Assembly (NCBI GenBank): GCA_903813345.2
Contig: CAIIXF020000001.1
Coordinates: 45,465,885 to 45,529,884, forward strand
Direction of reading: 5' to 3'
Source: Owenia fusiformis
Taxonomy: Eukaryota; Annelida; Polychaeta; Sabellida; Oweniidae
DNA: 64,000 bases
Part shown: in pieces, positions 21,436-57,099 of the stretch
Layout: every line of letters begins with the position of its first letter
Position numbering within the stretch: the first letter of the stretch is position 1
The notes under the pieces: generated by a model
What the model saw: the letters and a program-made list of their open reading frames with translations, nothing else
The model's database searches: none
What the model was told of the DNA's origin: nothing
Translations under genes and position numbers: made by a program

Positions 21436-24400
21436 ATGGTGCCTCACATCATTCTGTTGTCCTTGACGTTAGTTGCTAGTCACGGACACGTGAAGCGGCA
21501 AACATCCCTTGAAGTCCAATATCATTCTTTGATAGAAGCAATGCCACTACACGCCTGTTTCAGTAAGTATCAGCGAAGCAAAGCTATGAAGGGCAACATT
21601 TGAGAAAACAGCACACATCATGTTCGTCTTTTTGTAAATTCTAGGTATTTGGAAAATTAAAATCATGAAAGCTATAAACTTTGGGAGTCCAAGATGTGAC
21701 CATGACCAGTGACTTCATGATAACGTAAGGTTCTTAGACCATGCCGTTTCAAACATTTACTTAAAAACTATTCTATACAATGGGTAGACTATTAAACATA
21801 TTTTGAGGAACAAGTATGAGGTTTCTAAGTGGAAACAAATGCAGATTAAATCCTTGTAGCAAGAAAACATATTGAAAAAACGCTAAATATAATAGAGCCT
21901 GTCTTAAATCATTAACACGTTTAACTACGCTAATTTGGTCGTTCACATCATCATGGAATTAATTTTACAGATTACTAGTTCTTTCATGTTCTATTATCGA
22001 TATTACATTCGCAAATGAAGTCACAGATACCATACTAAAATATAATCGAAAATGTAATCTCTGCCCAGCAAATATCTCATCCATGTGATTGACACATATG
22101 AGAGTCATAATATAAAATCCTATTCAATTCGAATGGAAAATGAACATAATATGTGATTGCTAGGAATTGAATTTAAAATATGCTTCATCAAATAGTTGAG
22201 GCCTCATTCACATCCATAACATTTCCAGAGTCTTTTCATTTGGTCTGATTTCGCTTTTTAAGAGAAAACTTCATAGTAGTACTACTAAGTCTATGGTCCT
22301 CACTGTTCGTTTATTCGTGTTCATACACGTTCATACAAAAGAGCACATGAATATCATCGACCTGAGATGTATGTCCAACGTTATACATTTAGGATGTCCA
22401 TGGGTTCAGGGAAGTGACTGTTGTAGATATATACCATACGGTAGTGAAGACCCGTCGAACGAAAAGGAACACTTCTGTCCTCCTGGACTTGGTTGGAACG
22501 TTGAAGTTTGTACCTGTGACTGGCCTGGGAATATAGAGACCGGCTGTGATACGAGTGCATGTATACCTAAGCCAGTAACTACTCCAGACCCAGGTGCACC
22601 AACAACTACAACGAAGAGGCCAAAATTGAAGGAATGTCCAGCATTGAAGGAAAGTACGCACGACACTTTTTGGCGTAAATAGGGAGTTTAAGCTTGCATA
22701 TAAAATGGAAACGCCAACCGTATGACCAATCACCCATGTATAAATGCATCGATTAAATATGTACCGTTCACCTTTAGGTTGTGAAAAACATTGCAAGCTT
22801 AAACTCCCTACTATCTTTGGAATGTGTATTTTGCATTTGACTTCGATTATAATGAGACAGCAACTGTACACCTACTGTATATATTTATGAGATTAATATA
22901 TGGTCAGACATCGGTTGTTAAATGTGTATTCTCCTCAGGTTATTCTCCACCTTTCTTTTGCTTATTCGTATGCGTTTTTACAATTAAACAATTGCATTTT
23001 CAGATGAATGCTGTCTCCCAGATGTTGGACAATGGTTTACTAAGCTTAACGACACACATTACAGACTGAATGACGGTTACCCCCAAGGTTGCCCGGAAGG
23101 GATGCTTTTCAGTCATATCAGCTGTTGCTGTGAAGGTCAAGCCATAGGTACGTCATACCATTAACTATATACAGAAATATAGCATAGTGTAATTACATGT
23201 ATATATTTGTGTACACATACAGAACTAGATAGTGTGTAGTATAAAATGTTTGTAATGGAACTACTGATTTTGCCTTACATTAGGATTATATTGGTATTGG
23301 GCGAATTGTAATTCATTTATGATAATGTTATATTCAAAAGTAAAGTATTACCATAAATACCTTTGCAGTTCCCAATCCTTGCAAACATTGGACATTTGAT
23401 CGAGTAGATGGAAATGAGTACATTGACTCATTACAGCAAACGTTTGGACAAAGTATCCAAGCGAGCATTGTAGAGGGACACACTACTTCGAATAAAGGTG
23501 TATTCTTGGAAGAAAAAGATCGAGTGTCTATCCCCTACTTTTCAGGAGCACATTTTGGAAAGAAGTTCAGTTTAGGTATATTTAGGCTATGTCTATTAAA
23601 ATATTTCAACCGATGGACCAGAGGTTTAATCTTGATTTCTCTCCTAAAGATGGCTACATAACGCAAAGATGGCTACATAGCGAAACTTCAAAATTAAGCA
23701 TGAGGTAGTCTCTTTATGTTTATATCCCTTATACACATATACCAGGGCTGTCAATGTCAGATATTTTTCACGATTGAAGGTCTCTGGGTGAAAAGCTCTT
23801 CTAGCAACATTGGCAGTGTTGTTGTAAGCAACGGAAACAAACTGACCAAAGAATCAGTTGCCTTGGTGATGGTTGGTAATACAATAGCTGGCGGAATAGC
23901 AACAGAGCTTGAAAACCCACCTAATACTTATGACATGGCATTTTATGTAAGTCACTCATAATACACTCATAGTACTACATTTGTATAAATATTTGTATAA
24001 ATAGAGAAAAATTCAAATGATATATCCACCATTGCCAGCACACAACATCTATTGTAGCTTCTGCCTTCTATATTCAGAATCTTCGTGGAGATGGCTGGCA
24101 TTTTGTTGCTCTAACATATAGTGACCCAGAGTTGCGTATATACGTCGACCAACAACTGGCCCATACGTCCAGTCAAGGAGGTAAGTTATGTATCATTGTT
24201 GGTATCAAAGAGAAAACTATAGATGATGATTAACAAACGATATCCATTAACCAGATTATCAATGTAATGTACTGATCTATTTTACTTTTCAGGCAACATA
24301 CAGTCTAACTTGTGCCAGTTGAATATTGGCGGAGTACAGTCACCAAGCATCAATGTCGACGAGGTAAAATAACCGTGTACACGGTTGTGTTTACATCATT

Positions 24401-24800
24401 CAGTATAAGTCGTTTTGATGACATTAACACAATACAGAATAAAACAGATTATTTTATGAAAAATGGTGACCTTGTCCTACGGATATTGAGATTATGTTTC
24501 ACAGCAAGTTCAGATGGCGATACTGCATAGCACATGCTCAAGAGGTCGTGTATTTCAAAATCGAATTACTATGATTTTTGAAATGATGCTTATTCCGTCA
24601 ATCATATGAACTCTACAGATCAATGTCAAGTATAATTCAATGAAGATTCGTCATATCAGATGTGATTTCAAAATCAATGACATTCTCATTTGATATGTTT
24701 TCAGTTGGCAATTTGTGAGTTTACCTGGGATGCGTCTGACGTAGTAAACTTCAGAGACAATTCAATAATTCCTCAACTTGTACAACCCATTGGAAAATAA
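21436..24800 (+). CDS. Secreted protein with two Cys modules and a LamG-like domain, paralogue A
   Basis: The protein has 391 aa from 8 exons: 21436-21562, 22393-22653, 23004-23147, 23369-23575, 23780-23946, 24078-24180, 24293-24363, 24705-24800 (1176 nt). Order: signal peptide (MVPHIILLSLTLVASHG); a KR-Q dibasic site; Cys module 1 (about 44-84, CPWVQGSDCC then CPPGLGWN and CTCDWP); a Thr/Pro-rich linker; Cys module 2 (about 131-174, ECCLP then GCPEGMLF and SCCC); and a LamG/concanavalin-like domain (about 178-375) with GLWVKS, GWHFVALTY, LRIYVD, LNIGG and the closing VDELAICEFTW. The Cys modules resemble peritrophin-A (CBM14) chitin-binding repeats, and chitin-binding plus LamG recalls Pif/BMSP shell-matrix proteins, but no VWA domain is present. 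A role in matrix, cuticle or mucosal barrier is inferred. The exon 5 acceptor (AG 23778-23779) is weak but matches the paralogues. It is the first of three tandem copies. Confidence 0.88.
22682..22808. mobile_element. MITE, 127 bp, in intron 2 of paralogue A
   Basis: Near-perfect terminal inverted repeats GGGAGTTTAAGCTTGCA and TGCAAGCTTAAACTCCC are flanked by TA on both sides (22680-22681 and 22809-22810). It has no coding capacity. It begins 28 bp after the exon 2 splice donor. Confidence 0.85.
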
Positions 24801-25524
24801 ACTAGCGACCAACATTGTGTAAACCTTTTGCCTTGAACAGTTCATATGGAGATCAAATACAAACAACGAATAATTGTAAATATTATTTAAGGACTAGCTG
24901 ATCCTAGTTATCTACTGCATACACATTGTAGTAATCTTCGCATCGACATCATTTGTGAAACTGGAGAAGGCAACTGAGTCATTAGAAACATAATCAATTT
25001 TACATTTGACAGTAATTGTTTGGAAAAGTTACAAAATATTTGTTACAAACAAAAATAATGGAACTTTTAATTCACTTGAATCAAATATAGAATGGGATAA
25101 AAATAATAGAAAATCACGGAAATTTACCTTTATTCATTTTTATTGCAATTTTTCAAACAATGTATTTAAGAGTTTATATAAGACATTTGAAGAAGAGTAT
25201 ACTCTCATATAACATTGTCATTAGCTGATTGATGACGATTGCTTACACGATGGTAATAAGATGAAGACATTATGGTAAGATTTGACACATTTAACTCAAA
25301 AATGGATCCATAAGAGTTGATTTTAAGAAAACTAAAAATTAAATATGGATATATATGGAAAAGGCAGCTCAAGACAAGATTAGTAGATTTTCTTATTGAT
25401 GAATACTCATAAATAATGTTTAGAAATCACGATGATGTTATGGTAGCATAAAACGAGAAACTTGTGGCACAAAATTACTGTAACTTTCCCATTACATATT
25501 ACTAACTGTACTATCATATTATAG
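24801..25524. other. Intergenic spacer between paralogues A and B
   Basis: The 724-bp AT-rich spacer must hold the 3' end of A and the promoter or 5'UTR of B. The sequence directly before the B start codon ends in AG, compatible with a 5'UTR splice acceptor. No other feature is seen. Confidence 0.6.
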
Positions 25525-28500
25525 ATGGTGATATTAATATCAATACTGGTGATGGTTTTGATTGGGTTGGGTGATGGGCTTGAGAAAAGACAAGCTCCCC
25601 AAAATCTGTTTGCACTCCAATATCGAGGACTCATTGAGAATATGGAGCCAAAAGCTTGTTTTGGTAAGTATCATAGATTCGCTGTTTTTGTCATTTAGTC
25701 AATTTCTCACTCTTGACAAGATGTATTAGGGAGCTGATACTCTGAGAAATGGAACAATACTATGCCTCTTGTGTAGCATTCATTCAGGACAACATAGTTG
25801 TTCGATTCCCAATGGCCAACCTATGCATTAAACATTCTTCATTTTTTGTAGAATGTCCATGGATTCCAGGAAAAGATTGTTGTCATTTTGTTCCCCTGGG
25901 AAGTGTGGACCCCGAGAAGGAAGAAAGACAGTGTCCCCCTGGTCTAGGATGGAACCAGGAAACATGTAACTGTGATTGGCCATCCCTCATAAAGCCAAAG
26001 GGGATATGCGAACCACTTTATACATGTAACATTAACGTGACGACAGTCAACCCAGGAACAACGGCTGTTGCACCGACATGTCCCCCACTCTTTGAAAGTA
26101 AGAAAAGGAAATATAAAGTGAAGTGACCGAAGAGTCTTTGGACAGATATTTTGTGTAAATGAAATGAGCATGCGTTAATTCTAACACTTTTTGGCTATAC
26201 CTTACAAATGATAATAATGCACCAAGCCTCTGCCCCCGTCCCCTTCTCTCTAATACAGGATAAAGAGAGGATGGATTGCATGGAGCTTGACCAAGATGAA
26301 AATGTATCACTGGTATTTCAGATGAGTGTTGTATACCAGAGACTGCAACGTGGTATTCAAAGATAAACGACACGCACTATAGAGTAAATGGTAGTTACCC
26401 ACAGGGCTGTCCTGAAGGGATGAATTTTGATGACATAAGTTGCTGTTGCTTAGGATATACAATTGGTATGTATAAAGTAAAGAACAAAGTCCCAGGCGTT
26501 AGTAAGTACTATGCTAAACTATTGTTGAAGTAAATATTTTAAAAGATATATCGGCCCTTTCCATAAGATAACAATGGCGTCGAAGATGCAACGTAAATAC
26601 ATGTACATGGAGACGATGAGAGTGATAGCAACAAAAATGATGAAAACAAGGGTGATGAAGAGAAAGAGTTGTTTTGTTTATTTTCAGTTCCCGATCCGTG
26701 TAAGCTTTGGTCGTTTGACAGGGAAGCAGGCAACGAATTCACTGACTCGATCCAACAGACATTTGGCCAAAATGTCCGCTCTACCATAAGTGATGGACAT
26801 CTTGGAACAGATAAAGGGGTCTTCTTTCAGAACCAAGAGCGGATCTCTATACCATATTTTGCTGGGGCATACTTTGGAAAATGGTTCAGTTTGGGTAGGA
26901 AACGTTCTCATGTTTCCAATCATTCCTTAAGTAGTCAACGATTGCATAACGATTGACCAAGATACTATTTTTGCCAGAAATATATCAGATATTTCATAGG
27001 ATATGACATCATTATATTAAATATTGTATATCATTTACTAAAGCAAGTGAGAATAACCCAGTGAAATTGTTGTTTATTAGGTCTTTGGGTTAAGAGCTCA
27101 TCCAATAACTTCGGGACAGTTGTGTTAAGTAATGGCAACAGAGAGGTCAAGGAAACAATCGCTCTAGTTATGGTTGGTAACAGTATAGCAGGAGGTGTAG
27201 CAACTGCGAAGGAAGACCCTCCTAATACATTGGATATGCCACTTACGGTAAATATAAATGATCAAATGAATATATCAATGTTCAATAAGTTTGGTTTCAT
27301 TGGTGATACGTTGAAGACGTTTTATTTTTTATCAAAACATAATGCTGGAATTAGAATATTTGGAAAAATATCCAAAAAGAAGAATACCTCAGTTTTGTCA
27401 GTCCTTATGAAATTGAATCATAGTATCATACTTCGAGTTTATTGCATTACTTTGTTTCTGGTCTAAAAGCACAACATTTATACTTTTGGTATTCGAATCA
27501 GATTTATAGCAAAACAAAATAACTTTAACCGGGAAAACAAGAACAACGACACTGCTAACTCTACGATACATTTATATTACTACTAGGCTATGGGAGATGA
27601 CGGGTGGCATTTTGTGGCAATGACATACGATGACCCCATACTCTCTGTATACATTGACAATAACCCACCACTTGTATTTGAGCAGGAAGGGGGTAAGCAT
27701 ATGAATTCTTGTTCACATTTCTTCAATATTCGAATGTACTCTGAAATCAATTATAATATATGAAACTTTTTCAGAAACAATAACGAATGGTTTGCAATAT
27801 ATTTAATATCTTATGGAGTAATCAGTCAGAATCTTCAATCCTTTGTTCAATTCTTGTTTTTCAACGTGAACGTGAAAATGGAATGGATTCTACTATACAC
27901 TGTATAAAGCAATATTGCATGAATCACACCGTACCTTTAATTGAAGAAGAAGATGATGATGATCAATTCGTTATACACATATATATGTTTGCTTGAGTGT
28001 TGAGCTATTTACACGTTCTGAGACATGTTCTGTTTGTTTTAAAATAGGGGGGATACTTTCCAACTTTTGCCAGTTGAATCTTGGTGGAGTTCAGTTTCCA
28101 AATTTCAGCATGGATGAGGTAAGTCTGTTTCACAATTATGAAAAAGTAAAAACTGATTACTTCTTTGAATAGATAAGACTACATGAAATCCATGAGAATG
28201 AAATGGCTTCTTTTTGGTCTGAATTTGGGCTATTTTGGATAGCTTTGAAGGAGGTCTTGACTTTTCGGAACTTTCTTTGGAAATGCTAGAGTATCGGGTT
28301 ACTGCATATATATTTAAAAAATACATAAAATCCATTGCATTTAAATTATATGGGAAATATTTGTAATCCTCAATACTGAGGGAATAATTGAAATACAATT
28401 CAATGCAATTCAATGCAATACCATGCAATGCAATTACAATAAAATAGATAAGCACACACTAATCAAGGGAAAGATCAATACCCGGTGATTTCAGCGGGAA

Positions 28501-29898
28501 GTGGCGTTTCGTTCATTGGATGAGCTGCGCGCGCACGCATAAATGTGATTATCCAATATAATTAGGGGAGGGCTATTTGAAGTAGTTTTTGGTCTCAGGC
28601 GCGACCCAGGGCTGTTGTCTTAAGGACATTTCGTTGAAAATGAGCCATTCGGCTGATAATTGGTAAGAGTTTGCGATCTTATAATGTATAACTGTTACTC
28701 AGACACATATTTTGACACGATTCTGTTGGAAATAAGCTTTGAACCGAGAGATATTCACGATTGATATGCACATTTTTGATTGTGCCATTGCTTTTCTATT
28801 GCACAACCCATGTATTGATAGAAGAAACATTAATAATACAGATTGGTTTACCTTCAATACATGGCAGACACTACATATCGGTCTATTAATACCAGTTTGT
28901 GCCTTAAATAGTTTTATATTTCCATCCACGGCCTGGAGCCTGGGTGTGTTTGTCTCTTATGTGTATGCTTGTGCATGGACTTCTAATCACTAGCAGAATT
29001 TAACATGATGCAAACTCGACATTATAACTCATGCTGTAACATTTTGACTTCGCTGGAAAACAATAGGAATTATTTTTCTTGCCAATCAATCATGAATCAC
29101 AATCAGAATTTCAGAATGATCAATCAGGCAATGATCCAAATCAAGTTATAACATTATATGATATTCAGCAAGAAGTCCGGTAGAAATACAGAATATTTAA
29201 ACATCAAAGCTGAAAGTTAAAAGCTAATCTGTCAATTTTCTGTCTGCAAAAGAGCGTCCCAAGAGCGTTTACATTTGACACAATAACAGACTGAGACCTT
29301 GAAATCTAGGATTCCCCAGGAAAATATGACGTCATACTAATTAGCATAAGGATTTCCCTATTGGGGTGGGTCGAGCCTTGTTCGAAAACACAATCCATAA
29401 ATACATGCTAATTTCTAAGGAGATAGGAAGTGTATAACGTGTTTATCGATTTTGTTTAAAGATTTAATCAATTATCAAATTGTTTAAGTGGATAAAGTGG
29501 TCACACTTGCTTCAATTCATAGCGAAATCGACGGATAGAAACTGACCGAATTCCCGATATCCTACCCCGTATTACTGTAGGCTATAAGCACAGTGACCTA
29601 CAGAGGGCGCTATCACAAACAAGTACTGGACGAACCGATAAATTCCCGGGTATTGTAACGCCCTTGCACTAATCGTATACTACTATAACTTTAATCTTTG
29701 TTGATGGGAATTTCATATTGTAGGTAGTGCCATCTATTTTATCGAATTTAGTTTATACTGATTTACTCGAAGCTTGTCATGAATGACTTTAAAACTTCAT
29801 TTTAGCTTTGTATCTGCGAGTTTACATGGAATGCAACGGACGTGGCAGAGTTCAGAGACAATAAAGCTGTACCCAAACTTTATCAACCATCTACATAA
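25525..29898 (+). CDS. Secreted protein with two Cys modules and a LamG-like domain, paralogue B
   Basis: The protein has 390 aa from 8 exons: 25525-25663, 25852-26097, 26322-26465, 26688-26894, 27081-27247, 27587-27692, 28048-28118, 29806-29898 (1173 nt). Exon phases match paralogue A. It has a signal peptide (ILVMVLIGLGDG) and a GLEKRQAP dibasic site. Cys module 1 shows CPWIPGKDCC, CPPGLGWN and CNCDWP. A short linker contains sequon N-V-T, and module 2 shows ECCIP, GCPEGMNF and SCCC. The LamG-like part carries VPDPCKLWSFDR, GLWVKSSSNNFG, GWHFVAMTY, VYIDN, LNLGG and CEFTWNATDVAEF. Sharing the domain order, phases and Cys spacing with A and C shows tandem duplication. The function is inferred as extracellular matrix or chitin-associated; no enzyme residues are seen. 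The last intron is the longest (1.69 kb) and holds a GC-rich island listed separately. Confidence 0.88.
28397..28436. repeat. Short AATGC-type microsatellite in intron 7 of paralogue B
   Basis: Words CAATTCAATGCAATTC and CATGCAATGCAATT repeat irregularly with a period of 5 to 10 bp. Confidence 0.7.
28485..28665 (+). promoter_or_regulatory. GC-rich, CCAAT-containing island, possible internal promoter
   Basis: A GC-rich patch sits inside an AT-rich intron. It contains two CCAAT-type words in opposite orientations (CATTGGATGAG and ATCCAATA), a GCGCGCGCACGC run and a GGTCTCAGGCGCGACCCAGG stretch. A candidate short first coding exon follows (ATG 28640, ending 28662 at a GTAAGA donor). This could be a promoter of a nested gene or an alternative start, or a piece of a dispersed repeat. 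I found no convincing next exon, so the call is tentative. Confidence 0.3.
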
Positions 29899-30609
29899 TA
29901 TTGTAAAATGTGTTATTTCTTGCACTTGATTGTACTTGACTCTCCCTTTGCTGGAACCTCTGAGAGAAGGACTATAAAAAAAGTTCAAATGAATAACCTA
30001 TGTTGCGAATGGACGTTGTTGTTGTTGCATATTGTTGTGGCACAAATCTTGTAATATTGATCTTGTAATGTTCGGGCCTATATTGAAAAATATTCAATTA
30101 TTGAAATATGTGCACTGTTGCATAATTATTTCTGTCTGGTCAATTGTATCTATAGGATTTAGAAAAAAAATGGTAATGAAACTAGAATCTACATTGCTGT
30201 TAATGTCATTTCACCACAAATATAAATGTTGCCTACGCTGCCCAGGGGGAAATTTTATCGACACTGTGACAAACAGAATTTTTAAATCGATTATTAACCG
30301 ATATTAGAGTAAGTAAAACTTAATTTTATATTCAATTTCGTTAATTTGTCGATTAATTATAAAATGTATGACTTGGTTGGGACTTATTATATCCACGTAA
30401 CCATTTGATTGAGTATTTGAAGTATATAGGTTTACCCATTACGGAGCCGCCATCTTGAAAATAAATCCATCAAATTTTAAATGTTCAGTTTTATAGCTGT
30501 TAACAAGTATAGTTTAAATTTTTGAGTTCATTTTGTATGTGAATGGAGAAGAATAAAATGAAATACATGAACAGTATGGTATTCAATGGACTATATCATT
30601 TAGGCAGAT
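29899..30609. other. Intergenic spacer between paralogues B and C
   Basis: The 711-bp AT-rich spacer is very close in length to the A-B spacer (724 bp), as expected for a duplicated block. An open frame at 30032-30307 has no recognisable features. The base pair AG lies two bases before the C start codon, again compatible with a 5'UTR acceptor. Confidence 0.6.
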
Positions 30610-33600
30610 ATGTTACGGGGTTGGATACTGTGCCTCTTGGTAGCATTCGCCTATACAGAGGATGAGCATAATATCAGAAAGCGACAAGCCCCTGGTAAGA
30701 GGCGTAATCTTTTAAATATAAAGTTCTATGAATAATATAAATGTAAAATGATATCAATATATATCAATCCATGCTGACCTAAAACATAGAGATAAACGTT
30801 TCTTAGATAATCTATTTGTTTATTTACAACATCTTAGATTTTGCCATAAGATTTGAATTGCTAAACAAGGTGTATTGTTTTAACCACATGAGGAAAAAGG
30901 TTATTTAAGCTTTGATTTACAAGTATTTTATTTTTATATTTTCAGACTTTATAGATTTTGTCTATAATATCTTAGATGGAATGCCACTTTCATCCTGTTT
31001 CCGTAAGTACATCTTGCTGAAATATTATCCTCTCTGTATTTTAATTGTAACTCAATCTTAAAGAGACATTTGTTGATTGCTGACGGTGCATTCATCGCGG
31101 AAATCTCGTTTGTAGAAGTTAACTATGAGTCACACAAATGCATTTAATAAATATGTAATAAACACAATTTGAAATTATATTTTATTTGAAATTTGTTCAT
31201 TTACTGTAAATATATTACATATACTGTGGTAACTACCTGTCACCTACGTGCATTCTCTCCTTAGTGAACACATGACAATTACTTGTATTAAGGTAAATGT
31301 TATTTGATATGGAATTGACACCATCGTTCATGCCATAAAGGTCAGAGACTTAGTGTGTGGATAGAGAGATATAGCATGTCAAGCGCTCACTCACTTTGAT
31401 TAGAGTCAAGTAATTTAGAATATGGCCATCTCAAATTATCGCTCTGCAAATAATTGAAAAAAGGTCATCAGGCGGACATCTACCATATTGTTTTGTAGAA
31501 TGCCCTTGGATTCAGTCAACAATAGACTGTTGCCACTTTCTTCCCCTTGGAGGACCTGAGTGGCAAACAACACGTTGTTCTCCCGGCCTCGCCTGGAATC
31601 CCGATGTCTGTAACTGCGACTACCCAGAGAACGTTCCATTATGCAACCCAGGAAGGGACTGCATCTCTCTTCAAGAACCAGGGGGTAGTGAGATAGTTCT
31701 ACATATGTGTCAATCAAAGAAAAGAAAAATCAACAGAACAGTATTGCCCATGTTATAATTGCTTTCCGTCTGTTCTAATAATACATGTAGAATACTATTA
31801 TACATGATAGGAATGTTAACACAAATTACTTTTAAAACACAAATCAGCTTTTCATTTCAAAGGTTACTGTTTTTAATTGTATACTTCCATTTTCACTGCA
31901 GTTTCAGTTAAGTTTTATAATTTTGAAATTTCGAATGCAATCGAGCATAATGATCTTTTATTTCTCTAGTACCCCTACAAACGCCCACACCTGCGCCGTC
32001 ATGCCCCTTAAATCTCGCAGAGGGTAAGTTCACATTATTTGACATTTTGAGATAAAATCGGTGGTCATTATAGAAGCATTTTATTTAATTTAAAAGTGGC
32101 CGTATAAAACCGAAAGGCAGCATGAGAAGACGCTCCTCAATAAAAAAAATTATAAATGTATTTGAGGTCCAACTTTTCTGGGCTACCAAAGTATTCTGAC
32201 TTATGCCCAATTATGGCGACCCAAGTACTCTGAGTCCACTTGAAAATTCACAAGGGAGAGTGACAAAACGTGTTTTAAGGAATGTTGGCCCCTTTTCTTT
32301 TTGAAAATATGGGCCCATTTTTCAAAATTTTAACCATTTTTTCTGAACGTATATCGGGTGGTGTCCCCATCAGTACTGATTCATTTTTATTGAAAGTTTC
32401 TATAAAAGTAGCCTAAGGGTATCATTGCCAAGTTGTACGAATATTAAAGAGATCGGTTACATAGTGGGCCCCCCATAGTTTGTAAGAAATGACTTATTCA
32501 AAAATGCATGTCAAAAAAACAATATCAATGGAATTAAAATTAAATTGCCTCTTATTTCAGTGTAAAAAAAGCTGTTTTAGCAAGCACAAATGCTTAGCAT
32601 ATCTTTCCATCGATATCAAGTCAAATCATCGTGAGACCTACACATCTACCTTCGGTCCCCAGTTAGATATGCATATCTCCCTCGGGGTAAGCCTGGTGTG
32701 AAAGAAATTATGGTCCCCCAGGGATTATGGTCCCCTTTCTAAACGGCCCTTACTGGCCCTGATTGTGTATACGATAATAAGGGAAAGAGGTCAACAGAAA
32801 AAATGAAGAGTAGGACCATCGTTTCATAGGACCCCCTACCATTTTACACCTGAATGCTTTGGTCAACTCAGAATACTTCGGCGAGAGTTGAAGAACTTGG
32901 GTAGCCCAGAACACTTGTAGCTTGACAGATGTATGCCTCCACAAACTTTATTTACTTCCCAATGAAATATCAATTTGTTCATTTAGATGAATGTTGTCTG
33001 CCGAGAGTTGGTCAGTTCTACAAAAAGATTAATCTTACTCACTACCGGATAAACAATGGTCTGATTCAGGGTTGCCCTCCTGGGCAGGAGTTTAGTGAAT
33101 TTGACTGTTGTTGTGAGGGACACGCAGTTCGTAAGTAAGCTTCATATACCATAAAGGAAAAACTGAAATCAAAAACAAAAGATCAGCATTCAAATTTATT
33201 CAAAGTTAAGATTCAATTAACCATTTGGTATGGTGCTTTGAAATCTCCCCGAAGTCTCATTACTTTCCACTAAGGATTCACATTTTTACTATTTGTGACA
33301 TATTTGAATTCTGTTTCTAGAAGAACTTTGATTCGCACATGCATTTCATTTTATTCAATGTCTATTTTAAAATATTCGATGAAGAATGGAAAATCCATGT
33401 ATGCAGATTCGAGTATGATACCTCTTTGACTACATTTTGAATATATCTAATGACGAAAATCAAGATCATTTCTTTTTTTAGCATCTAGTCTATTTGGATC
33501 CCGTTTCTCGGGTCTACATTACTCCTTATTTATGTGGCTATTTGGCTAATAATCTTAGATCATGGACGGAACGTAATTGGCACACAGGACCTGGTCTAGT

Positions 33601-36600
33601 ATGGCAAGTGATTTTAGACAGTCTTTACCATGAATACTTTCTCAATTTAAATAAAAATATTGGCAATCGAACAGGTCGAAAAATTATGAATAGGGACCCC
33701 ATGTCAACATTTGTTTTGAAATTGTTGGACCTAGTTACACAAAAGAGGATCTTCATTTTCTGATTTTATTCCATGAAAATATTATTCAACAAGGGGGTCT
33801 AAAATTTCTTCAAAAGTAGAATGGTATTGAAAGTCCAATTTCGAAGATAACGATTTTCGATGACCAAAATTATATTGAAAACAATGGAGAGCTTGAACGT
33901 TTCCTTTGGAAAAAATAACATTGGAGATGTGACTTTTAACTTCATCGCATTTCAATACCCATTTCCTTTTCAGAAGTAGTGTAGAAGAAACTTTTGGTAT
34001 ATTTGAATTGAGAAAAACAAGATCCACTTCTTAGAAAATAAGCATAACATTTTTTTTAAATGTAACAAGGTCGGGTTCTAATCTATAATGTTTAAGAGAT
34101 ATGGATTAGTATTTTTAATATCACGGAGATTTCACATGAATGAAAACATATTGTTTTATCAAAAACCATTGGATTTAAGGCCAGAAAGTACTCATGGTGA
34201 TATAAATGACTGTCCAAAATCAGTCGCCTTAGCATACCTGGTCCTTTTAAGATTTTCCCTGTTGTGGTGTCCATGTGATAAATAAAGTATACCTAATATC
34301 AAGTGCGACTTTATTTTAGTGCCAAACCCGTGTAAGTTTTGGACTTTTGATAGGAAGGTTGGAGAGGAATACATTGACATAAAGCAACAGACATATGGTC
34401 AGTCTATACGCGCTGAGATAGGCATAGGGGTAGACGATGAAGGCAAAGGCCTTCATATGAACCCTAATACTATGATGACAATACCGTTCTTTGCCGGGGC
34501 GCATTTGGGTAAAAAGTTCTCAATTGCAATATGGGTGAAGTCGGATTCGAATAACATTGGCAGTGCTGTGATAAGTAACGGCAACAGATTAAACGATCCA
34601 ACCGTTCTCTTGATTATGGTCGGGAATAGTATAGCAGGAGGTATTGCAACACAGGATGAAGAGTTCATGGATGCACTTGATTTACCACTCACAGTAAGTG
34701 CCGCCGTGTTCACACCACGATCATGTAATATATTCCCAATTGCTCGTTATTCTACGTTCATCGTTGAATTATAGTGTACGATATGAAAATCCAAAATTAA
34801 AAGCCAGCCGATATTTTCATAATGTTTGAAAGAATTGACAAAAATACTATAAAGTACACTCCCTCAATAATAGTAGCAACCGGATGTCATCTTCTTGACT
34901 GCACTGGCGGATCCAGGAGGGGGGCAGAAAAAAATGTTGAGCCCAAAAAGATTTAGGTCCAAAAGTTTTGTAGTGCCTTTATTAATGGGCAGAATGGGCC
35001 TCAAATTTTCAAAATGTGGGTCCAATTTCGGGGCCCAATTTTTTCTGATTTGAAATAAGCCTCTCCCTTGTTGGCTTCTGGATTTGCCAGTGGACTGCGT
35101 GTGATCGAAGGCACAGACACCGGAACATACCTGTTCTGTCTGATGCTTGTGTGAAAGTCTGTTCTATTGGCGATTTAAGAAATCCATCTTTGCCGAACAA
35201 TCGTAATAATGGAACGAAATAAAGATCCAAAGATTAACATATTAACTTATAGGTGGAGGCGTCAATTTATTGTCTTCTTGTTTTAGAGCATGGGAGGTGA
35301 TGGATGGCATTTTGTGGCAATGGTCTACAACGATCCAATTCTTTCCTTCTATATCGATGACCAACCAGCTATCCAATACCGCAATGGTGGTAAGGTGAAC
35401 TCCAATATTATTCTGGGTGGGCCAAAAAAGTTCATGTTTTGTAGTTTGCTATGACTATTTTGACAATACATTGATTTCGAAAATGATTTGTTATAAAGCA
35501 AGATCAAAAGTGCTCTAACCATTAATGAACATTAATGAATACCCTCGACATGGGTTGCCACGGTTACCATAGAACGCAGAATATTAAATGTAACGTGTTG
35601 AAATTTGTTTTGTGTTTATGTCTTAATTTTAAATTAACTTTCTGTGAGAAAATGAGCCAGGTTCATTAATGGTTACAACAGTTAGAATGCCTTTGGTCTT
35701 ACTTTATGACCACCCTGTAGATGCTGGAATGACTTCTGTAAGTAATTAAATAAATATATTTTCGAGGGTTTATTAGGGTTTTTTCAGTACAGTCAGACTA
35801 ATATGGAAGCGTACGTACTCAAAATATCCGAATGTATTTCTTGACAATTTGTTTTAATGGTCTATGGAACTCAGGTAAGTACGTATACTTAGCTAATCTT
35901 TCTGACCAAAAATAAACATTTCAGCCATTCATTTTCACTTAGAATTTCGGCCTGCCAGTTCTGTTTTTAATATAACCTTGAAAATGTATTTGTTTTATTT
36001 AGGGACCAAATACAGAAGTGATTCTTAAAGTTTGAATCCACGTGCTTACAATTATAACTTTCTCGTCCAAACACTACTGGAGACATTCTTTTGAAATGGA
36101 TTGGATAATTCTGATACTTGATATTTTGGCCCACATTGTTATTACATTGTATGATTGTTAATTTGCGCCAAAAGAACGCTCGTAATAAATATATTAACAC
36201 CTTTTAGATTGTCCAGAACATCAGAGGAGAATTGCACTGTGACATTTGTAATAACAAATAATGGTAGTGGTGCTGTAATATTAGCCATCTTGTTTGAACT
36301 TATTTTGATGCTCGATTGGTGTTCTCTTTCATGCCTTAAATGAAGACTCACACATCACGCTGTATGTTCTTCTAACCGGGGCCTACATATACAGGGTGGG
36401 CCAAAAAAAGCCACTTTTTTTCAAGACACTACAACTTTTTTATTTTCCAACCTACATACCCCAAATTTTGCAGTTATATAGTGCCAAGCGTTCTTAGTCA
36501 TAATATAATGTAACAAGTCATTCAACTTGAATTATATTTGATCTAAAAGGGGAGTTCAATTGGTCCGCCAGCCTAATTTATGATATATTTTAGTTTTAGT

Positions 36601-39600
36601 CGCCTTGCTGAAATTGCAGTGTCAATGAATTGTTAGCTAAGTTTTTTCGACCTGTCTTAATTGCCAGCTTTAGTTGATCAATTTTCTAGATTGGGTGACT
36701 TCATACAATCTCCTGGAGACCTTCCCATACCCTATACTCACTGGGGTTTGCATCAGGGCTATAAGCATTGCGATCATCAGGCCGTATCAGTTCGGGAACA
36801 TTTAGCAAATTATGCTTATTTCTCATGGCACACCACATGTTTAAGTGAGACGCTAGTGACATATTTTATTCAAGTAAAAGTGTATAATTTATGATCCATG
36901 GCTATATAACAACCCCAAGTTTCATTTGGTATGCAAATTATGATTTAATATCAAAAATTAAAAAAGTTATAGCATTTTGAAAAAAAAAGTGGCGTTTTTT
37001 TGGCCCACCCTGTATATATATAATAATTATGATGATAGAAAGGTCATATTCACTGACAATACGTTGTTTCTCCAGGACCAATCTTGTCCAACTACTGTCA
37101 ACTGAATATTGGAGGTGTTTTGTTCCCAGAGCTCAACGTGGATAACGTAAGTTTAATATTGATGAGCCATCATGTTTCATCCATTCACGGGAGACACTAG
37201 TATACAAGAAGAGTCTTTGTACAGTGTGTGCACCCTCAATCGGACAGAAAGGTACCCCTAGTTTAAATCAGTGCACCAACGTTCAACGAGCTTTTCTTCG
37301 TACTAAGAAACTGAATTTCTCAGTAGGGATGACAAAATGTTGCTTCATACCATGCTTTAAATGTCATCAATATTAGGTGAGTCATTACAAAAGGTAGGAA
37401 CGCGTATCTTTATCAAAATTATTTTCAAAATTTCTCAATAAGATGTTTGAAATGAGAAAATTTCCTAATTCCTGGAAACTAGGGAATATTATCCCATGCC
37501 ATAAAAAAGTGACAAAAACCTTGTTTCTAATTACCGTCCAATAACTTTATTAGCTGCCTTTCAAAGGTAGCTGAGAGAGTTATTTTTAAAGGGATGTTTG
37601 GCCATTTGCTAACAAACAATCTTCTATTTAATTTTCAAAGTGGATTTCTCCCAGGTCACAGTACACAACACCAACTACTAAGTATTCTTGATTTTTTAAC
37701 TTCTAATATGGATAATGGTAATGATGTTCGTGCAGTCTTTCTTGATATATCGGCCGCCTTCGATACTTTACCCCATAAGCTATTATTTAAGAAGCTACAT
37801 GCATACGGTTTTGGTCCAAATATAATGCTACTTATTGAATCTTATCTTACCAATCGAAAAGTAAGAGTGCTTATTGACGGACATGAATCTCCATGGTCAG
37901 CCAGCGACTATATCAATTCGGGGGTTCCCCAGGGGTCCATCTTAGGACCATTGCTATTTTTAGTTTACATAAACGATTTACCTGATGATATTTTAAGCAA
38001 GTGTTTTCTGTATGCAGATGACACTTTTCTTTATCAGCCCTTCAGCCATGATAATATGCCTGAATGTATAAACACCCTCCAATCTGATCTAAATTCTATA
38101 AACAATTGGTCTGATAAATGGCAATTAAAATTCAAACCCTCTAAAAGTGATGATTTGACATTAAGTAGCCCAAAAAAGAATGAAATAATAACCCCTGACC
38201 CAAAATTGGGAACTGAATCCATACCTAGGTGTGTTTCACATAAACACCTTGGCTTTATCTTTGACTCTAAATTATTTTTCAATTTCCACATTACCCATCT
38301 TGCAAAGAAAATTGATAAGCTTTTAAATCCACTTAAAGCATTAAGTAGAAAACTTAGTGGAAACCATTTAAATCTTATGTTCAAATCTTTTATCTTACCA
38401 CATTTTGATTTCTGCGACATCCTCTATGGATGTGCAGATATTTCCAAATTAAAACGTATTGACCAACTCTACTACAAGGCAGCTCTGATTTGTAGTGGAA
38501 CTATATATGGGTCATCTTCTGAAAAGGTGCTCAGTATTCTAAATTGGCCTAAACTAGAGACGGGGAGGCAGTTTCATCGACTAACCCTCATGTTCAATGT
38601 CCAAAATCAGAAAGTTCCTTCATATGTTCAAAACATATTTGATAAATATAAGAGACAACAACCTCCTCTCTATTTGAGAAATCCAACTGAATTTGTCTTG
38701 CCCGCTAAAAGATCTGTGATATTAAAGAAAACATGCATTTTTACAGCTATCTCAGAATGGAACAAACTACCCCAACAACTCCAAGTGATAGACAACTTAA
38801 GTACTTTCAAATCTAAATTTACACTTCTCATTTATCCAGAACTTATCATATCATCTACCTCATTGCATTTACCTAGACCAGAGAAAATCAGTCTTAATAG
38901 GACTAGAGTCGACTTGATTTTTCAATCTCATTTTCATGCCCACAACTTTACTCTAGCTGATACACCAAAATGTAAGTGTGGATTCAAAAGTGAAACATCC
39001 AAGCATGTCATCTTTAACTGCAGACTCCGTAGGACCCTCCTAACTGACTTCGAAATTAAACTAAATAACCTTGAAATCCAATATAAAAAGAATTTTAAGA
39101 CCCAACAAGAGAAATTGAATTTCTTTCTTTTTGGCAGCTCAAAATTTAACTACGCTACAAACATAACTGTTCTTGAAACTAGTGCCTCTTTTCTCCAGAA
39201 GTGTGTAAGTGTCTGAGTGTTAACAGCAATTATCAAACCTTCTATGCTTAATTTACTCACCAATTTGATTCACCAAATGGATTGTTTGTTTTTTTTAAAA
39301 TAAATTTTGTTAATTAACCCTGCGACTTATAATGATAAACAAAGTCGCCTTTTTGGAAATTTTCTTTTAACATATATTATTGTATTAAATAAAACATGAT
39401 AAATAAATAAAAAAAGTCGCGCAGTTAAGATATGATATCAACCTGATGCCCGTTCATTCTCTTATTTGACCATCCCTTCTATGTCGCCCAAAATTGGGGA
39501 AATTAGGAAATAAGACTCCACTCGAAGCAAAGGAGTACATCATGACCACGTTTATCTCTGCCTGGGATAAGAAACGCGATCGATGAACTTATGATTTCAA

Positions 39601-40466
39601 AGATTTTTGCAATTTAGACTTATGTTGAAACTGACAAAATAAGTGATGATCCTGATGTGATTGAACAGTCACAGCGACATAACGGAGATTGTCTGTATTG
39701 CAAATTGATCGTCTACTAGTATCTTCCCATCCTGGCTTTTAGTTAGTTCTAGAACGACAATTTCGTGATATCTTTTAAGTATCAATTGTGTGATACTTAT
39801 CATAGATTCAGAGCTAAAAAGTAAAAAGTAGTGATATCTATTAATAGCCTATTATGTTATATATACCATTGTTGTCATACTTTTTGCCGTATTTTAAAAA
39901 ATTTATTTACCTTTTAAGGGAGTAATTGTATATGTACAAGTATTGTATATTGTATATACAATTACTCCATCTCGATATCTCAATATCGTAGGTATTTACC
40001 TTTTAACGTGTTGTAAAGGTTGTGGTATCTTTTTTGTTATGGAATAATTGCATGTAATACCATCATTATTAGAGTTTTGACTTGTTATACTTTTTCTTAT
40101 TGTTTGAGAGAAGATCCAACTCCAAAATTAATGACTAACAAATGATAAGATATTAGAGACATTATTTAACACGTTTTTGTCCACGGGGACATCACAATTA
40201 TTTTCTACACACCTTCCTCCTCAATCGGATAAATAAAGACCATTGCGCTGAAACTAGTCCACAATTTTACACTTTTAACGTTCACGTTCTTCAAAACGAT
40301 GCTTACTTTAATCTATATAAGCTATATTTTACTTCTGACTTAATCAGATAACAATTTTATTTTACAGCTTGGGATATGTGACTTTGATTGGACAGAAGCG
40401 CAGGTTGCGGAGTTCCAGAGCACCAAGAATATCCCTACAGATCAACAGTTCACAGTCCGTGGTTAA
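30610..40466 (+). CDS. Secreted protein with two Cys modules and a LamG-like domain, paralogue C
   Basis: The protein has 390 aa from 9 exons: 30610-30694, 30946-31002, 31499-31684, 31970-32023, 32987-33130, 34320-34693, 35287-35389, 37076-37146, 40368-40466 (1173 nt). It has a signal peptide (ILCLLVAFAYT) and an IRKRQAP dibasic site. Cys module 1 shows CPWIQSTIDCC, CSPGLAWN and CNCDYP. A Pro/Thr linker sits on its own small exon, and module 2 shows ECCLP, GCPPGQEF and DCCC. The LamG-like part carries PNPCKFWTFDR, IAIWVKS, GWHFVAMVY, FYIDD, LNIGG and ICDFDW. It differs from A and B in exon structure. The N-terminal segment and the linker are split onto extra exons, and the two first LamG exons are one 374-nt exon. 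The introns are swollen by MITEs and a LINE, but the exons stay open, so the gene looks functional. Confidence 0.87.
32165..32925. mobile_element. Probable decayed inverted-repeat element in intron 4 of paralogue C
   Basis: The words TTCTGGGCTACC and AGTATTCTGA near 32176-32242 reappear in inverted orientation at 32857-32911. Between them lies AT-rich DNA with runs such as GGGCCCCCC. The ends are not sharp and no target duplication was found, so borders are approximate. Confidence 0.4.
34902..35092. mobile_element. Small MITE, 191 bp, in intron 6 of paralogue C
   Basis: Terminal inverted repeats CACTGGCGGATCCAG and CTGGATTTGCCAGTG match at 13 of 15 positions. They are flanked by the direct repeat GACTG (34897-34901 and 35093-35097), a likely 5-bp target duplication. 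There is no ORF. The transposon superfamily is uncertain. Confidence 0.7.
35415..35719. mobile_element. Possible degenerate MITE in intron 7 of paralogue C
   Basis: The left edge CTGGGTGGGCCAAAAAAG resembles the end of the element at 36392-37012, and the right edge reads (opposite strand) CAGGGTGGTCATAAAG followed by a TA. The inverted copy of TAACCATTAATGAAC inside supports a shared origin of the two halves. The ends are diverged and the left TA is not clear. Confidence 0.4.
36392..37012. mobile_element. MITE, 621 bp, TA-flanked, in intron 7 of paralogue C
   Basis: Ends CAGGGTGGGCCAAAAAAAG and, on the opposite strand, CAGGGTGGGCCAAAAAAAC give near-perfect inverted repeats continuing as CCAC/GCCAC plus a T run. 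They are flanked by TA (36390-36391 and 37013-37014). A short ORF inside (36661-36894) does not resemble a transposase, so it is non-autonomous, probably Tc1/mariner class. Its right end is only 63 bp before exon 8. Confidence 0.85.
37400..39430 (+). mobile_element. 5'-truncated LINE of the CR1/Jockey group in intron 8 of paralogue C
   Basis: A reverse transcriptase reading frame occupies most of it and is in the same orientation as the host gene. The 3' end after the stop codon is AT-rich and finishes in an ATAAATAAATAAAA tail just before about 39416, typical of CR1/L2-like LINEs. The 5' part (endonuclease region) is missing. At least two single-base gaps break the frame at about 37511 and 37553. 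The exact left border and a target duplication could not be seen. Confidence 0.85.
37594..39216 (+). pseudogene. LINE reverse transcriptase, 540-codon open remnant
   Basis: From the ATG at 37594 the frame is open for 540 codons. The motifs are in normal RT order: SGFLPGHST (16-24); FLDISAAFDTLPHKLL, with the motif A aspartates at about 51 and 57; GVPQGSILGPLLF (110-122); the catalytic YADD at 140-143; KHLGFIFDSKL; and a C-terminal zinc-knuckle-like CKCG...H...C (C460, C462, H471, C476). The thumb and C-terminal region fit Jockey/CR1-type elements. The N-terminal RT motifs lie upstream in other frames because of small deletions, so this copy is dead although this part is still open. The opposite-strand ORF at 38034-38420 is a shadow. 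Confidence 0.85.
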
Positions 40467-47080: not shown

Positions 47081-47970
47081 TCTATGTTAACTGAACCCAT
47101 AAAGAAAATATATTAGTCCCTCCATAAGGTCCGGGCCTCTTCGTAAATTAAAATAATTGGACTTTTAATCTAGGATAAAACTGCATCAGCTTTCGAAAAT
47201 AATGTATCACCTTATTGTCGGGTTAATGGTGGCAGGTATAAGCAGGTGCCTTGTGTGTATGTTGAAACGGACACGTTGATGAAGTCGAATAACATACGTT
47301 GTAATAATCAAGATATCAATTTCGTCATAAAATTGATATGGAACATTATATTGAAATCAAATACACTTACAGAGTGCAAAAGATAGAAGTTATCCCTTCA
47401 TACACTGTTTAGAGACTTTAGACGGCAATGCTTGAACACGCATCGGCGCTTTTCATTAATCCGTGTACGTAATCCTCGGGGTAATATACGGCCAACCTTT
47501 CGGGATGTTCAGTTAGATTATGAGCTGTTCGATTCTACTGAGAAATGAAGAATGACTTATCGTATATTGTAAATTTGCAAAACAAGATAAAAACATCTTA
47601 GAACAAAGGATAAGCGTATTAGGGGGAACATCGACAGCAGACCACTGCTCGAATGCCGCTGAAGATAGTGCCGGCTTTATTGCAACAGATGCAGGGATGC
47701 GCTAATAAACTGCATTCAGCTCCGTTCGTGAAGTTAATATACTAAAGACAGCACCCAGTCAAAGACGTCATTGTTAGAGTCGTCGGCATATGCATCACAC
47801 GGACAAGCATTCGACCGACGAAACATCAGCAATAAATAAGACGAACATAATGAATATAGAGAATTAAGCGAAAATCAAAAAAACGTGAGAAACTATACTG
47901 ACAATAAAGAAGTGATTTGTGGTAAACGGACGTGCAGCTGAGAAGAGCACTTGGATCACAAAAGGGAGAT
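47081..47970. other. Upstream region of the GPCR gene
   Basis: Non-coding by inspection. It should contain the promoter and 5'UTR of the receptor gene. The frame of the first exon stays open upstream to 47932 without another ATG. Confidence 0.5.
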
Positions 47971-48423
47971 ATGGATCCTGTCGAATCGCCAGACTATTTG
48001 GATCCTATCTCAGATCAAGATGAATATCCCGACTATAACCTTACGCAATCGTTTAACAAATCTATGATTTTCAATAAAGTCAACGACACGAAGACATTCG
48101 AAAAATATTATAATGAATATAACCTGACTGACGAGGAGTATATCGACGATATTTTACAGTTTATTTTTCCGACACCGCCCGAATGGTTCCTTATACTGTT
48201 GTATACTATCATATTCATAGTCGGAATAGTTGGAAACTTTCTCGTCTGTTTTGCAGTATGGCGAAATCATCATATGAGAACGGTCACAAATTATTTCATC
48301 GTGAATTTGGCGATAGGCGACTTTCTAGTAATTCTAGTATGCCTCCCGCCTACCGTTCTGACAGATGTCACAGAGACGTGGTATTTGGGAACGGTTATGT
48401 GCAAGATAATCAAATATATCCAG
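47971..48423 (+). CDS. Orexin/allatotropin-type neuropeptide GPCR, first coding exon only
   Basis: The exon encodes 151 residues of a rhodopsin-class receptor and ends at a GTGAGA donor in phase 0. It has an acidic N-terminal tail (1-70) with N-L-T sequons and DEEYIDDILQFIFP just before TM1, as in orexin receptors. TM1 (about 72-97) has the GN pair (N89). The diagnostic NHHMRTVTNYFIVNL leads into TM2, with D117 at position 2.50. ECL1 has TDVTETWYLG and the disulfide cysteine C144 at the start of TM3. The NHHMRTVTNYF and ETW signatures belong to orexin receptors of deuterostomes and allatotropin receptors of protostomes. The exon break right after KYIQ matches a family intron position. TM3-TM7 exons were not found downstream, so the intron exceeds 15 kb and leaves the window. 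Predicted ligand: orexin- or allatotropin-like peptide. Confidence 0.9.
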
Positions 48424-57060: not shown

Positions 57061-57099
57061 AGTTCAATTTGGCGTTTTAGCATAGATAGTTTAATTTGG

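What the first reader, a model, noticed from the sequence alone, without database searches (positions are those of the whole stretch)
21436..40466. Three tandem genes for a distinct secreted family: two Cys modules plus a LamG-like domain
Seen: three complete head-to-tail genes of 390-391 aa with the same order of parts, near-equal spacers (724 and 711 bp) and matched intron phases. Known: chitin-binding repeats joined to LamG occur in Pif/BMSP shell-matrix proteins, which also have a VWA domain; none is found here. Inference: this is a separate, locally expanded family of matrix or barrier proteins, possibly undescribed.
Basis: partly seen in the sequence, partly recalled or inferred. Interest (0 to 1): 0.75.

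Follow-up and report, generated by a model that had tools for sequence, protein, structure and literature searches.

The report
Tandem genes resembling chitin-matrix proteins
Three neighbouring genes in an invertebrate animal genome probably encode small secreted proteins that grip chitin with one end and other matrix molecules with the other; the genes look real, but they belong to an already described, widely expanded kind of shell, tube or cuticle matrix protein.

Summary
Three head-to-tail genes of 391, 390 and 390 aa splice with GT-AG introns only, are 48-57% identical, and lie 724 and 711 bp apart. Intron match is partial: gene 3 lacks one LamG intron and has two extra introns. Module 1 is a divergent CBM_14 (peritrophin-A) domain; module 2 is probably a more diverged CBM_14-like module (not proven); the C-terminus is Laminin_G_3. 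No VWA was found. 'Separate, local, possibly undescribed' is not supported: 42 module-2 sites were counted on 9 chromosomes of this genome, a few weak, and chitin-binding plus LamG without VWA is published as 'LamG3', the VWA-less relative of Pif (PMC10543319). Tandemly expanded LamG proteins, one clade linked to ChtBD2, are published for tubeworms (PMC8476170). The LamG profile matches the published Pif/BMSP LamG N-terminal motif but not the C-terminal one. Best reading: secreted chitin-matrix cross-linkers, new members of a known kind. Function and tissue are untested. Loss of one canonical CBM_14 cysteine in all 8 full chromosome-C1 copies examined is the most unusual detail.

The parts
21436..21562 (+). 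Gene 1 exon 1: hydrophobic start (signal peptide by eye), KRQ site
   Evidence: KRQ invariant in the three proteins; no signal-peptide program was run
22393..22653 (+). Gene 1 exon 2: module 1 (CBM_14-like) and Pro/Thr linker
   Evidence: 12.7 bits, below cut-off 22.1; profile-profile, as part of 12 copies
23004..23147 (+). Gene 1 exon 3: module 2 (CC...CPxG..F...CCC)
23369..24800 (+). Gene 1 exons 4-8 (23369-23575, 23780-23946, 24078-24180, 24293-24363, 24705-24800): Laminin_G_3 domain and stop
   Evidence: 30.8 bits, cut-off 27.6
25525..25663 (+). Gene 2 exon 1: hydrophobic start, KRQ site
25852..26097 (+). Gene 2 exon 2: module 1, CBM_14 over Pfam cut-off, and linker
   Evidence: 23.2 bits, cut-off 22.1
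26322..26465 (+). Gene 2 exon 3: module 2
26688..29898 (+). Gene 2 exons 4-8 (26688-26894, 27081-27247, 27587-27692, 28048-28118, 29806-29898): LamG domain and stop
   Evidence: Laminin_G_3 19.3 bits, below cut-off 27.6
30610..31002 (+). Gene 3 exons 1-2 (30610-30694, 30946-31002): hydrophobic start, KRQ site, split by an intron absent from genes 1 and 2
31499..32023 (+). Gene 3 exons 3-4 (31499-31684, 31970-32023): module 1 and linker, split by a second extra intron
   Evidence: CBM_14 15.9 bits, below cut-off
32987..33130 (+). Gene 3 exon 5: module 2 (the exon whose fold was predicted)
34320..40466 (+). Gene 3 exons 6-9 (34320-34693, 35287-35389, 37076-37146, 40368-40466): LamG domain; exon 6 covers what are two exons in genes 1 and 2; a reverse transcriptase ORF sits in the last intron
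   Evidence: (Laminin_G_3 23.6 bits, below cut-off)

Best explanation
The three genes encode small secreted matrix proteins of the LamG3 kind (chitin-binding plus LamG, no VWA). After export and probable trimming at the shared KR|Q site (inferred), module 1, and perhaps module 2, would bind chitin, while the LamG jelly-roll would bind other matrix proteins or glycans. The protein would thus act as a two-ended cross-linker in an extracellular chitin-containing layer (tube, cuticle, chaetal or gut lining). Shown: gene models by homology, domain order, no detectable VWA, CBM_14 relationship of module 1, recurrence across the genome. Inferred: secretion, trimming, chitin binding, tissue, cross-linking.
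For: Gene models with canonical splice sites. Pfam CBM_14 over cut-off in gene 2 and Laminin_G_3 over cut-off in gene 1. Alignment of 12 module-1 copies against 20 CBM_14 repeats of the same genome: hhalign probability 97.9%, score 58.1; highest of 30 column shuffles 20.6. PDB profile search with the trio: of 15 listed matches the three best are a chitinase, a CBM family 14 protein and chitin-binding beak protein 3, E 0.0057-0.048. Module 2 model (mean pLDDT 84.1): of the 10 best Foldseek hits 6 are chitotriosidase (two entries, one of them its CBM14 alone), Avr4 (two chains) and mite allergens Der p 23 and Der f 23 (CBM_14 nature of the allergens recalled); none significant, best E 0.89. LamG profile of 12 family sequences against the published Pif/BMSP LamG N-terminal motif: 11.9 bits, E 0.0062, above every scored shuffle (highest 3.1; 270 of 500 scored); with the trio-only profile 7.2 bits against 5.6 for the best of 305 scored. 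Order module 1, module 2, LamG found in 9 of 23 other family stretches, module 1, module 2, module 1, LamG in one more. Literature: LamG3 = CB + LG without VWA (PMC10543319); LamG proteins, and separately ChtBD2 proteins, in a chitinous tube proteome (PMC8476170).
Against: The published Pif/BMSP LamG C-terminal motif does not match (-1.9 bits; 317 of 426 scored shuffles score as high or higher). Module 1 of genes 1 and 3 is below the Pfam cut-off, and LamG of genes 2 and 3 is below it. At E 1e-5, the first threshold in PMC10543319, none of the three would be called with both domains; only the LamG of gene 1 passes. Module 1 of these genes lacks a canonical CBM_14 cysteine, so chitin binding is not assured. 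Module 2 versus CBM_14 by sequence is weak (15.4%, score 17.6 versus 14.5 for the best of 30 shuffles), and its five models differ in confidence (84.1 to 45.8). Eight of the 15 listed PDB profile matches are unrelated channel entries at E 1.3-1.8. The LamG structure prediction failed (mean pLDDT 35.2). No expression, proteome or binding data.
Confidence: 0.72

Rival explanations
1. They are soluble secreted lectins of immunity or of a mucous or gut barrier: the CBM_14-like modules would bind microbial chitin-like glycans and LamG would act as a pattern-recognition lectin.
For: A duplicated, diverged, cysteine-rich, lectin-like layout; old duplicates.
Against: The substitution pattern shows constraint (third-position excess). 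The closest published relatives with proteomic data are shell and tube matrix proteins (passages). Pfam listed no other domain over its cut-off in the three proteins.
Confidence: 0.15
2. They are a distinct family unrelated to Pif/LamG3, in which CBM_14-like and LamG parts were joined independently.
For: The Pif LamG C-terminal motif does not match; module 2 has a signature without a Pfam match.
Against: The same order recurs on other chromosomes, so the fusion is not local. The Pif LamG N-terminal motif matches. Pif/BMSP proteins are themselves described as CB plus CB-like plus LG (PMC11291548, passages).
Confidence: 0.08
3. They are pieces of larger VWA-bearing Pif-like genes whose VWA exons lie outside the modelled exons.
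For: Ancestral Pif is described as VWA + CB + LG (PMC10543319, passages); the gene models rest on homology only.
Against: Each gene starts with its own hydrophobic exon and KRQ site and ends in its own stop. No VWA match better than E 0.88 in 1543 window ORFs (profile built from 8 VWA stretches of this genome). The Pfam VWA search of the genome lists none in the window, but scored only 150 of 685 candidates and did not list all 156 matches. In 23 family stretches of 6-9.5 kb the best VWA-profile match is E 0.68.
Confidence: 0.05

Closest known systems
LamG3 proteins (CB + LG, no VWA) sensu PMC10543319, lophotrochozoans and Branchiostoma floridae
   Same: Chitin-binding module(s) with Laminin_G_3; no VWA; duplicated copies.
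   Different: Here two Cys modules in fixed order, the second strongly diverged; about 390 aa; module 1 lacks one canonical cysteine; orthology across phyla not testable here.
LamG proteins linked with ChtBD2 in vestimentiferan tubeworms (LamGP in all: 65 copies in Paraescarpia, 140 in Lamellibrachia; PMC8476170)
   Same: LamG joined to a chitin-binding peritrophin-A domain; expansion by tandem duplication.
   Different: Their sequences could not be compared here; no tube proteome for this animal; the copy numbers include the VWA-linked clade.
Pif / BMSP shell matrix proteins (PMC11291548, PMC9635652)
   Same: CB, CB-like and LG parts in that order; Pif LamG N-terminal motif matches.
   Different: No VWA found; no long insert in LamG; Pif LamG C-terminal motif does not match.
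CBM_14 / peritrophin-A domain (PF01607)
   Same: CP.GL.WN....C.CD.P core of module 1; profile-profile 97.9%.
   Different: Extra cysteines (DCC, CxC); canonical third cysteine absent in the window copies.

Membership tests
LamG3 (PMC10543319) | chitin-binding (PF01607) domain | tested here: met
   Gene 2 over Pfam cut-off, genes 1 and 3 below it; module 1 as an alignment of 12 copies, profile-profile 97.9%.
LamG3 (PMC10543319) | concanavalin A-like/LamG (PF13385) domain | tested here: met
   Gene 1 30.8 bits over cut-off 27.6; genes 2 and 3 match below cut-off (19.3, 23.6 bits) and align to gene 1 throughout.
LamG3 (PMC10543319) | both domains called at that paper's E 1e-5 (hmmsearch, followed there by InterProScan) | tested here: inconclusive
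   By hmmscan E-values only the LamG of gene 1 (3.7e-7) passes; CBM_14 of gene 2 is 7.4e-5. InterProScan was not on hand.
LamG3 (PMC10543319) | no VWA domain | tested here: met
   Pfam scan of the three proteins; VWA profile against 1543 window ORFs.
LamG3 (PMC10543319) | placement with LamG3 of other phyla in a tree | not testable with these tools
   No animal protein collection on hand; only a within-genome tree was built.
Pif/BMSP | one or more VWA domains upstream | tested here: not met
Pif/BMSP | conserved LamG N-terminal sequence | tested here: met
   11.9 bits, above all 270 scored shuffles
Pif/BMSP | conserved LamG C-terminal sequence | tested here: not met
   -1.9 bits, within shuffles
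Tubeworm LamGP with ChtBD2 (PMC8476170) | presence in a chitinous tube proteome | not testable with these tools
   no proteome for this animal
CBM_14 | canonical third cysteine retained in module 1 | tested here: not met
   Read from peptides printed: absent in 8 of 8 full module-1 copies examined on C1 (window trio included; a further C1 match at 864,533 was not examined); present in 15 of 15 full copies examined elsewhere.
CBM_14 (module 2) | sequence or fold relationship to CBM_14 | tested here: inconclusive
   hhalign 15.4%; 6 of the 10 best Foldseek hits are CBM_14 chains or a protein carrying one, none better than E 0.89

The most novel reading that the evidence does not exclude
The branch of this family on chromosome C1 (window trio, C1:40.04 cluster, C1:16.8 pair) carries a rewired chitin-binding module: it lacks the canonical third CBM_14 cysteine while carrying DCC and CxC cysteines, and so may have a new disulfide topology and a changed ligand. 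It is paired with a second, CCC-type module that has no Pfam match. This would be a new structural variant of CBM_14 used to build a VWA-free chitin matrix.
Probability: 0.2. Interest if true: 0.4.

Novelty: new member of a known kind. Interest (0 to 1): 0.25.

Why it matters
It adds a dispersed CB + LamG gene family without detected VWA (42 module-2 sites counted in one genome, a few weak) to the comparative record of how animals build chitinous matrices. That bears on the published proposal that Pif and LamG3 genes were co-opted for shell biomineralisation from an older role (PMC10543319, passages). As a single finding it is a clean but ordinary tandem cluster.

Tried and rejected
Tried without result: a COX1 search for a mitochondrial contig, no match. 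dS estimation failed by saturation. The LamG exon model was too poor to use. A crude scan for a KRQ start like that of the trio in L001-L007 gave one hit, in L002 just before a LamG exon and so unlikely to be a start; the site may be special to the trio.

Rejected: equal spacers as a sign of recent unit duplication; a VWA exon hidden in the window; weak module-2 matches at 55.7-56.0 kb, which lie in a tandem repeat. Six VWA loci (L040-L045), picked by me from the listed VWA matches, carry no module 1, module 2 or LamG match in the 6.5-9.5 kb fetched; one, L042, has a partial CBM_14 match (E 6e-4) between two VWA stretches, so VWA and CBM_14 may be joined there. This is a small, non-random sample.
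Full report
What was checked. The window lies at C1:45,465,885-45,529,884 of a 498.3 Mb assembly in 525 contigs. Frame-by-frame comparison of the three gene regions and reading of the DNA gave gene models that splice with GT-AG introns only: gene 1 21436-24800 (8 exons, 391 aa), gene 2 25525-29898 (8 exons, 390 aa), gene 3 30610-40466 (9 exons, 390 aa). Genes 1 and 2 have identical intron phases; gene 3 shares six of their seven introns, lacks one within LamG and has two extra phase-1 introns. Pairwise identity is 57.2, 48.4 and 48.5%. Synonymous sites are saturated and third-position changes dominate: old duplicates under constraint. The equal spacers are best taken as chance.

Domains. Pfam at E up to 10 gives, for genes 1, 2 and 3, Laminin_G_3 at 30.8, 19.3 and 23.6 bits (cut-off 27.6) and CBM_14 at 12.7, 23.2 and 15.9 bits (cut-off 22.1); weaker matches below cut-off were Laminin_G_2 in gene 1 and DUF4177 in gene 2. 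Single sequences thus straddle the cut-offs. An alignment of 12 module-1 copies from this genome matches an alignment of 20 CBM_14 repeats fetched from the same genome with 97.9% probability and score 58.1; 30 column shuffles reach at most 20.6. A profile of the trio finds, as the three best of 15 listed PDB matches, a chitinase, a CBM family 14 protein and chitin-binding beak protein 3, E 0.0057-0.048; 8 of the 15 are channel entries at E 1.3-1.8, evidently chance. Module 2 (CC...CPxGxxF...CCC) has no Pfam match. Against CBM_14 it scores 17.6 versus 14.5 for the best of 30 shuffles, probability 15.4%. Its predicted fold (47 residues, 3 sequences, mean pLDDT 84.1; the five models range from 84.1 to 45.8) hits chitotriosidase twice, Avr4 twice, Der p 23 and Der f 23 among the 10 best of 25 listed, Der p 23 with TM-score 0.62 over 39 columns, but no E is better than 0.89. 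That the mite allergens are CBM_14 proteins is recalled; where the full-length chitotriosidase aligns was not shown. I read module 2 as a strongly diverged CBM_14-like module, probable, not proven. The LamG exon model is unusable (mean pLDDT 35.2).

No VWA found. The window's 1543 ORFs of 25 aa or more give no VWA match better than E 0.88 with a profile built from 8 VWA stretches in 6 loci of this genome. The genome-wide Pfam VWA search lists no match in the window, but it scored only 150 of 685 candidates and did not list all its 156 matches. In 23 fetched family stretches (L001-L019, L046-L049) the best VWA match is E 0.68.

Genome-wide family. A search with gene 2 gave 52 matches at E up to 10, 20 of them in the trio itself. 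Profiles on the 23 family stretches show the order module 1, module 2, LamG on one strand in 9 of them (L001, L002, L004, L005, L006, L010, L012, L013, L016; on C1, C3 and C9) and module 1, module 2, module 1, LamG in one on C6 (L015); the other 13 show only part of this in the stretch fetched. Module 1, module 2, module 1 is also seen in L017, L019 and L049. Three more protein searches bring the count to 42 distinct module-2 sites on 9 chromosomes, the window's three included (which merges coordinates that I copied by hand). Three of the 42 rest only on matches with E between 0.001 and 0.01 (C9:15,462,783, C5:7,674,777, C4:6,382,192), and one (C4:14,568,151) is partial. The count is of modules, not genes, and the searches are not exhaustive. 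In a tree of 15 sequences the window trio groups together (93/95) and falls with the C1:40.04-40.06 genes (86/92, drawn as an open fork); only 2 of 12 inner branches are strongly supported, and long branches are present. Local tandem expansion thus seems to have happened more than once within an old, dispersed family.

A clade character. Read from the printed peptides, all 8 full module-1 copies examined on C1 (window trio, L001 twice, L002, L003, L004) lack the canonical third CBM_14 cysteine, as does one truncated repeat in L001. All 15 full copies examined on other chromosomes (L005-L008, L010, L012-L014, L015 twice, L017, L019, L046, L047, L049) keep it, as do two truncated ones that reach that position (L047, L048). 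Seven fragments that begin after that position were left out, and a further C1 match at 864,533 was not examined. This may mean a changed disulfide pattern in that branch. It is the most unusual detail found; no function was tested.

Comparison with what is known. PMC10543319 (passages read) defines LamG3 proteins as chitin-binding plus LG without VWA, found in lophotrochozoans and Branchiostoma, and derives them with Pif from an ancestral VWA-CB-LG gene; it also says that no Pif was found in the Paraescarpia tube proteome. PMC8476170 (passages read) reports LamG proteins expanded by tandem duplication (65 copies in Paraescarpia, 140 in Lamellibrachia), in two clades linked with VWA or ChtBD2; five LamG rows stand in the part of the tube proteome table that I saw, without saying which clade they belong to. 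PMC11291548 (passages read) describes CB-like domains beside CB in Pif/BMSP and quotes conserved LamG end sequences. The LamG profile of this family (12 sequences) matches the N-terminal one (11.9 bits; best of 270 scored shuffles 3.1) and does not match the C-terminal one (-1.9 bits; 317 of 426 scored shuffles as high). [quoted passage not shown] I therefore file the trio as new members of the LamG3 kind in the sense of PMC10543319, with cross-phylum orthology untested and that paper's E 1e-5 not reached by both domains in any one gene, and not as Pif/BMSP, which needs VWA.

Mechanism. A hydrophobic N-terminus (judged by eye) is followed by an invariant KRQ, which suggests export and dibasic trimming (inference). 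CBM_14-type modules bind chitin and LamG jelly-rolls bind proteins or glycans (general knowledge of the families, not tested here). A short two-ended cross-linker of a chitinous extracellular layer is the simplest reading. The main rival is a barrier or immune lectin.

Verdict. Observation confirmed; interpretation partly supported; a known kind of gene in a new place. Interest is low to moderate.

Noticed in passing
37531-39213: An uninterrupted 561-aa reverse-transcriptase ORF (RVT_1, 96.5 bits) lies in the last intron of gene 3 and makes up about half of that intron; it looks like a non-LTR element (type judged by eye).
   Followed up: partly
21436, 25525 and 30610: The start codons of genes 1 and 2 follow directly on an AG with a T-rich stretch before it (ttaag|ATG, tatag|ATG), and gene 3 has cag two bases before its ATG; this could mark a 5' UTR intron or a trans-splicing acceptor just before the start codon.
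   Followed up: no
47926-48489: Probable first coding exon of a rhodopsin-type GPCR (7tm_1, 68.1 bits) about 7.5 kb downstream of gene 3.
   Followed up: no
55005-57085: Large tandem array with a unit of about 152-154 bp; it gives spurious weak module-2 matches.
   Followed up: partly
C1:37,796,582-37,866,941 of the same genome: Dense array of VWA matches, many with equal scores and spaced about 1.9 kb, apparently a long repetitive VWA gene or cluster.
   Followed up: no
C11:15,407,496-15,411,773 of the same genome: Five listed CBM_14 matches within one open frame of 3683 aa: a very long chitin-binding repeat protein.
   Followed up: no
L001 and L002 versus window genes: The intron inside LamG is present in genes 1, 2 and the first L001 gene but absent from gene 3 and both L002 genes, so it was gained or lost more than once, or the tree is not as it looks.
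   Followed up: partly
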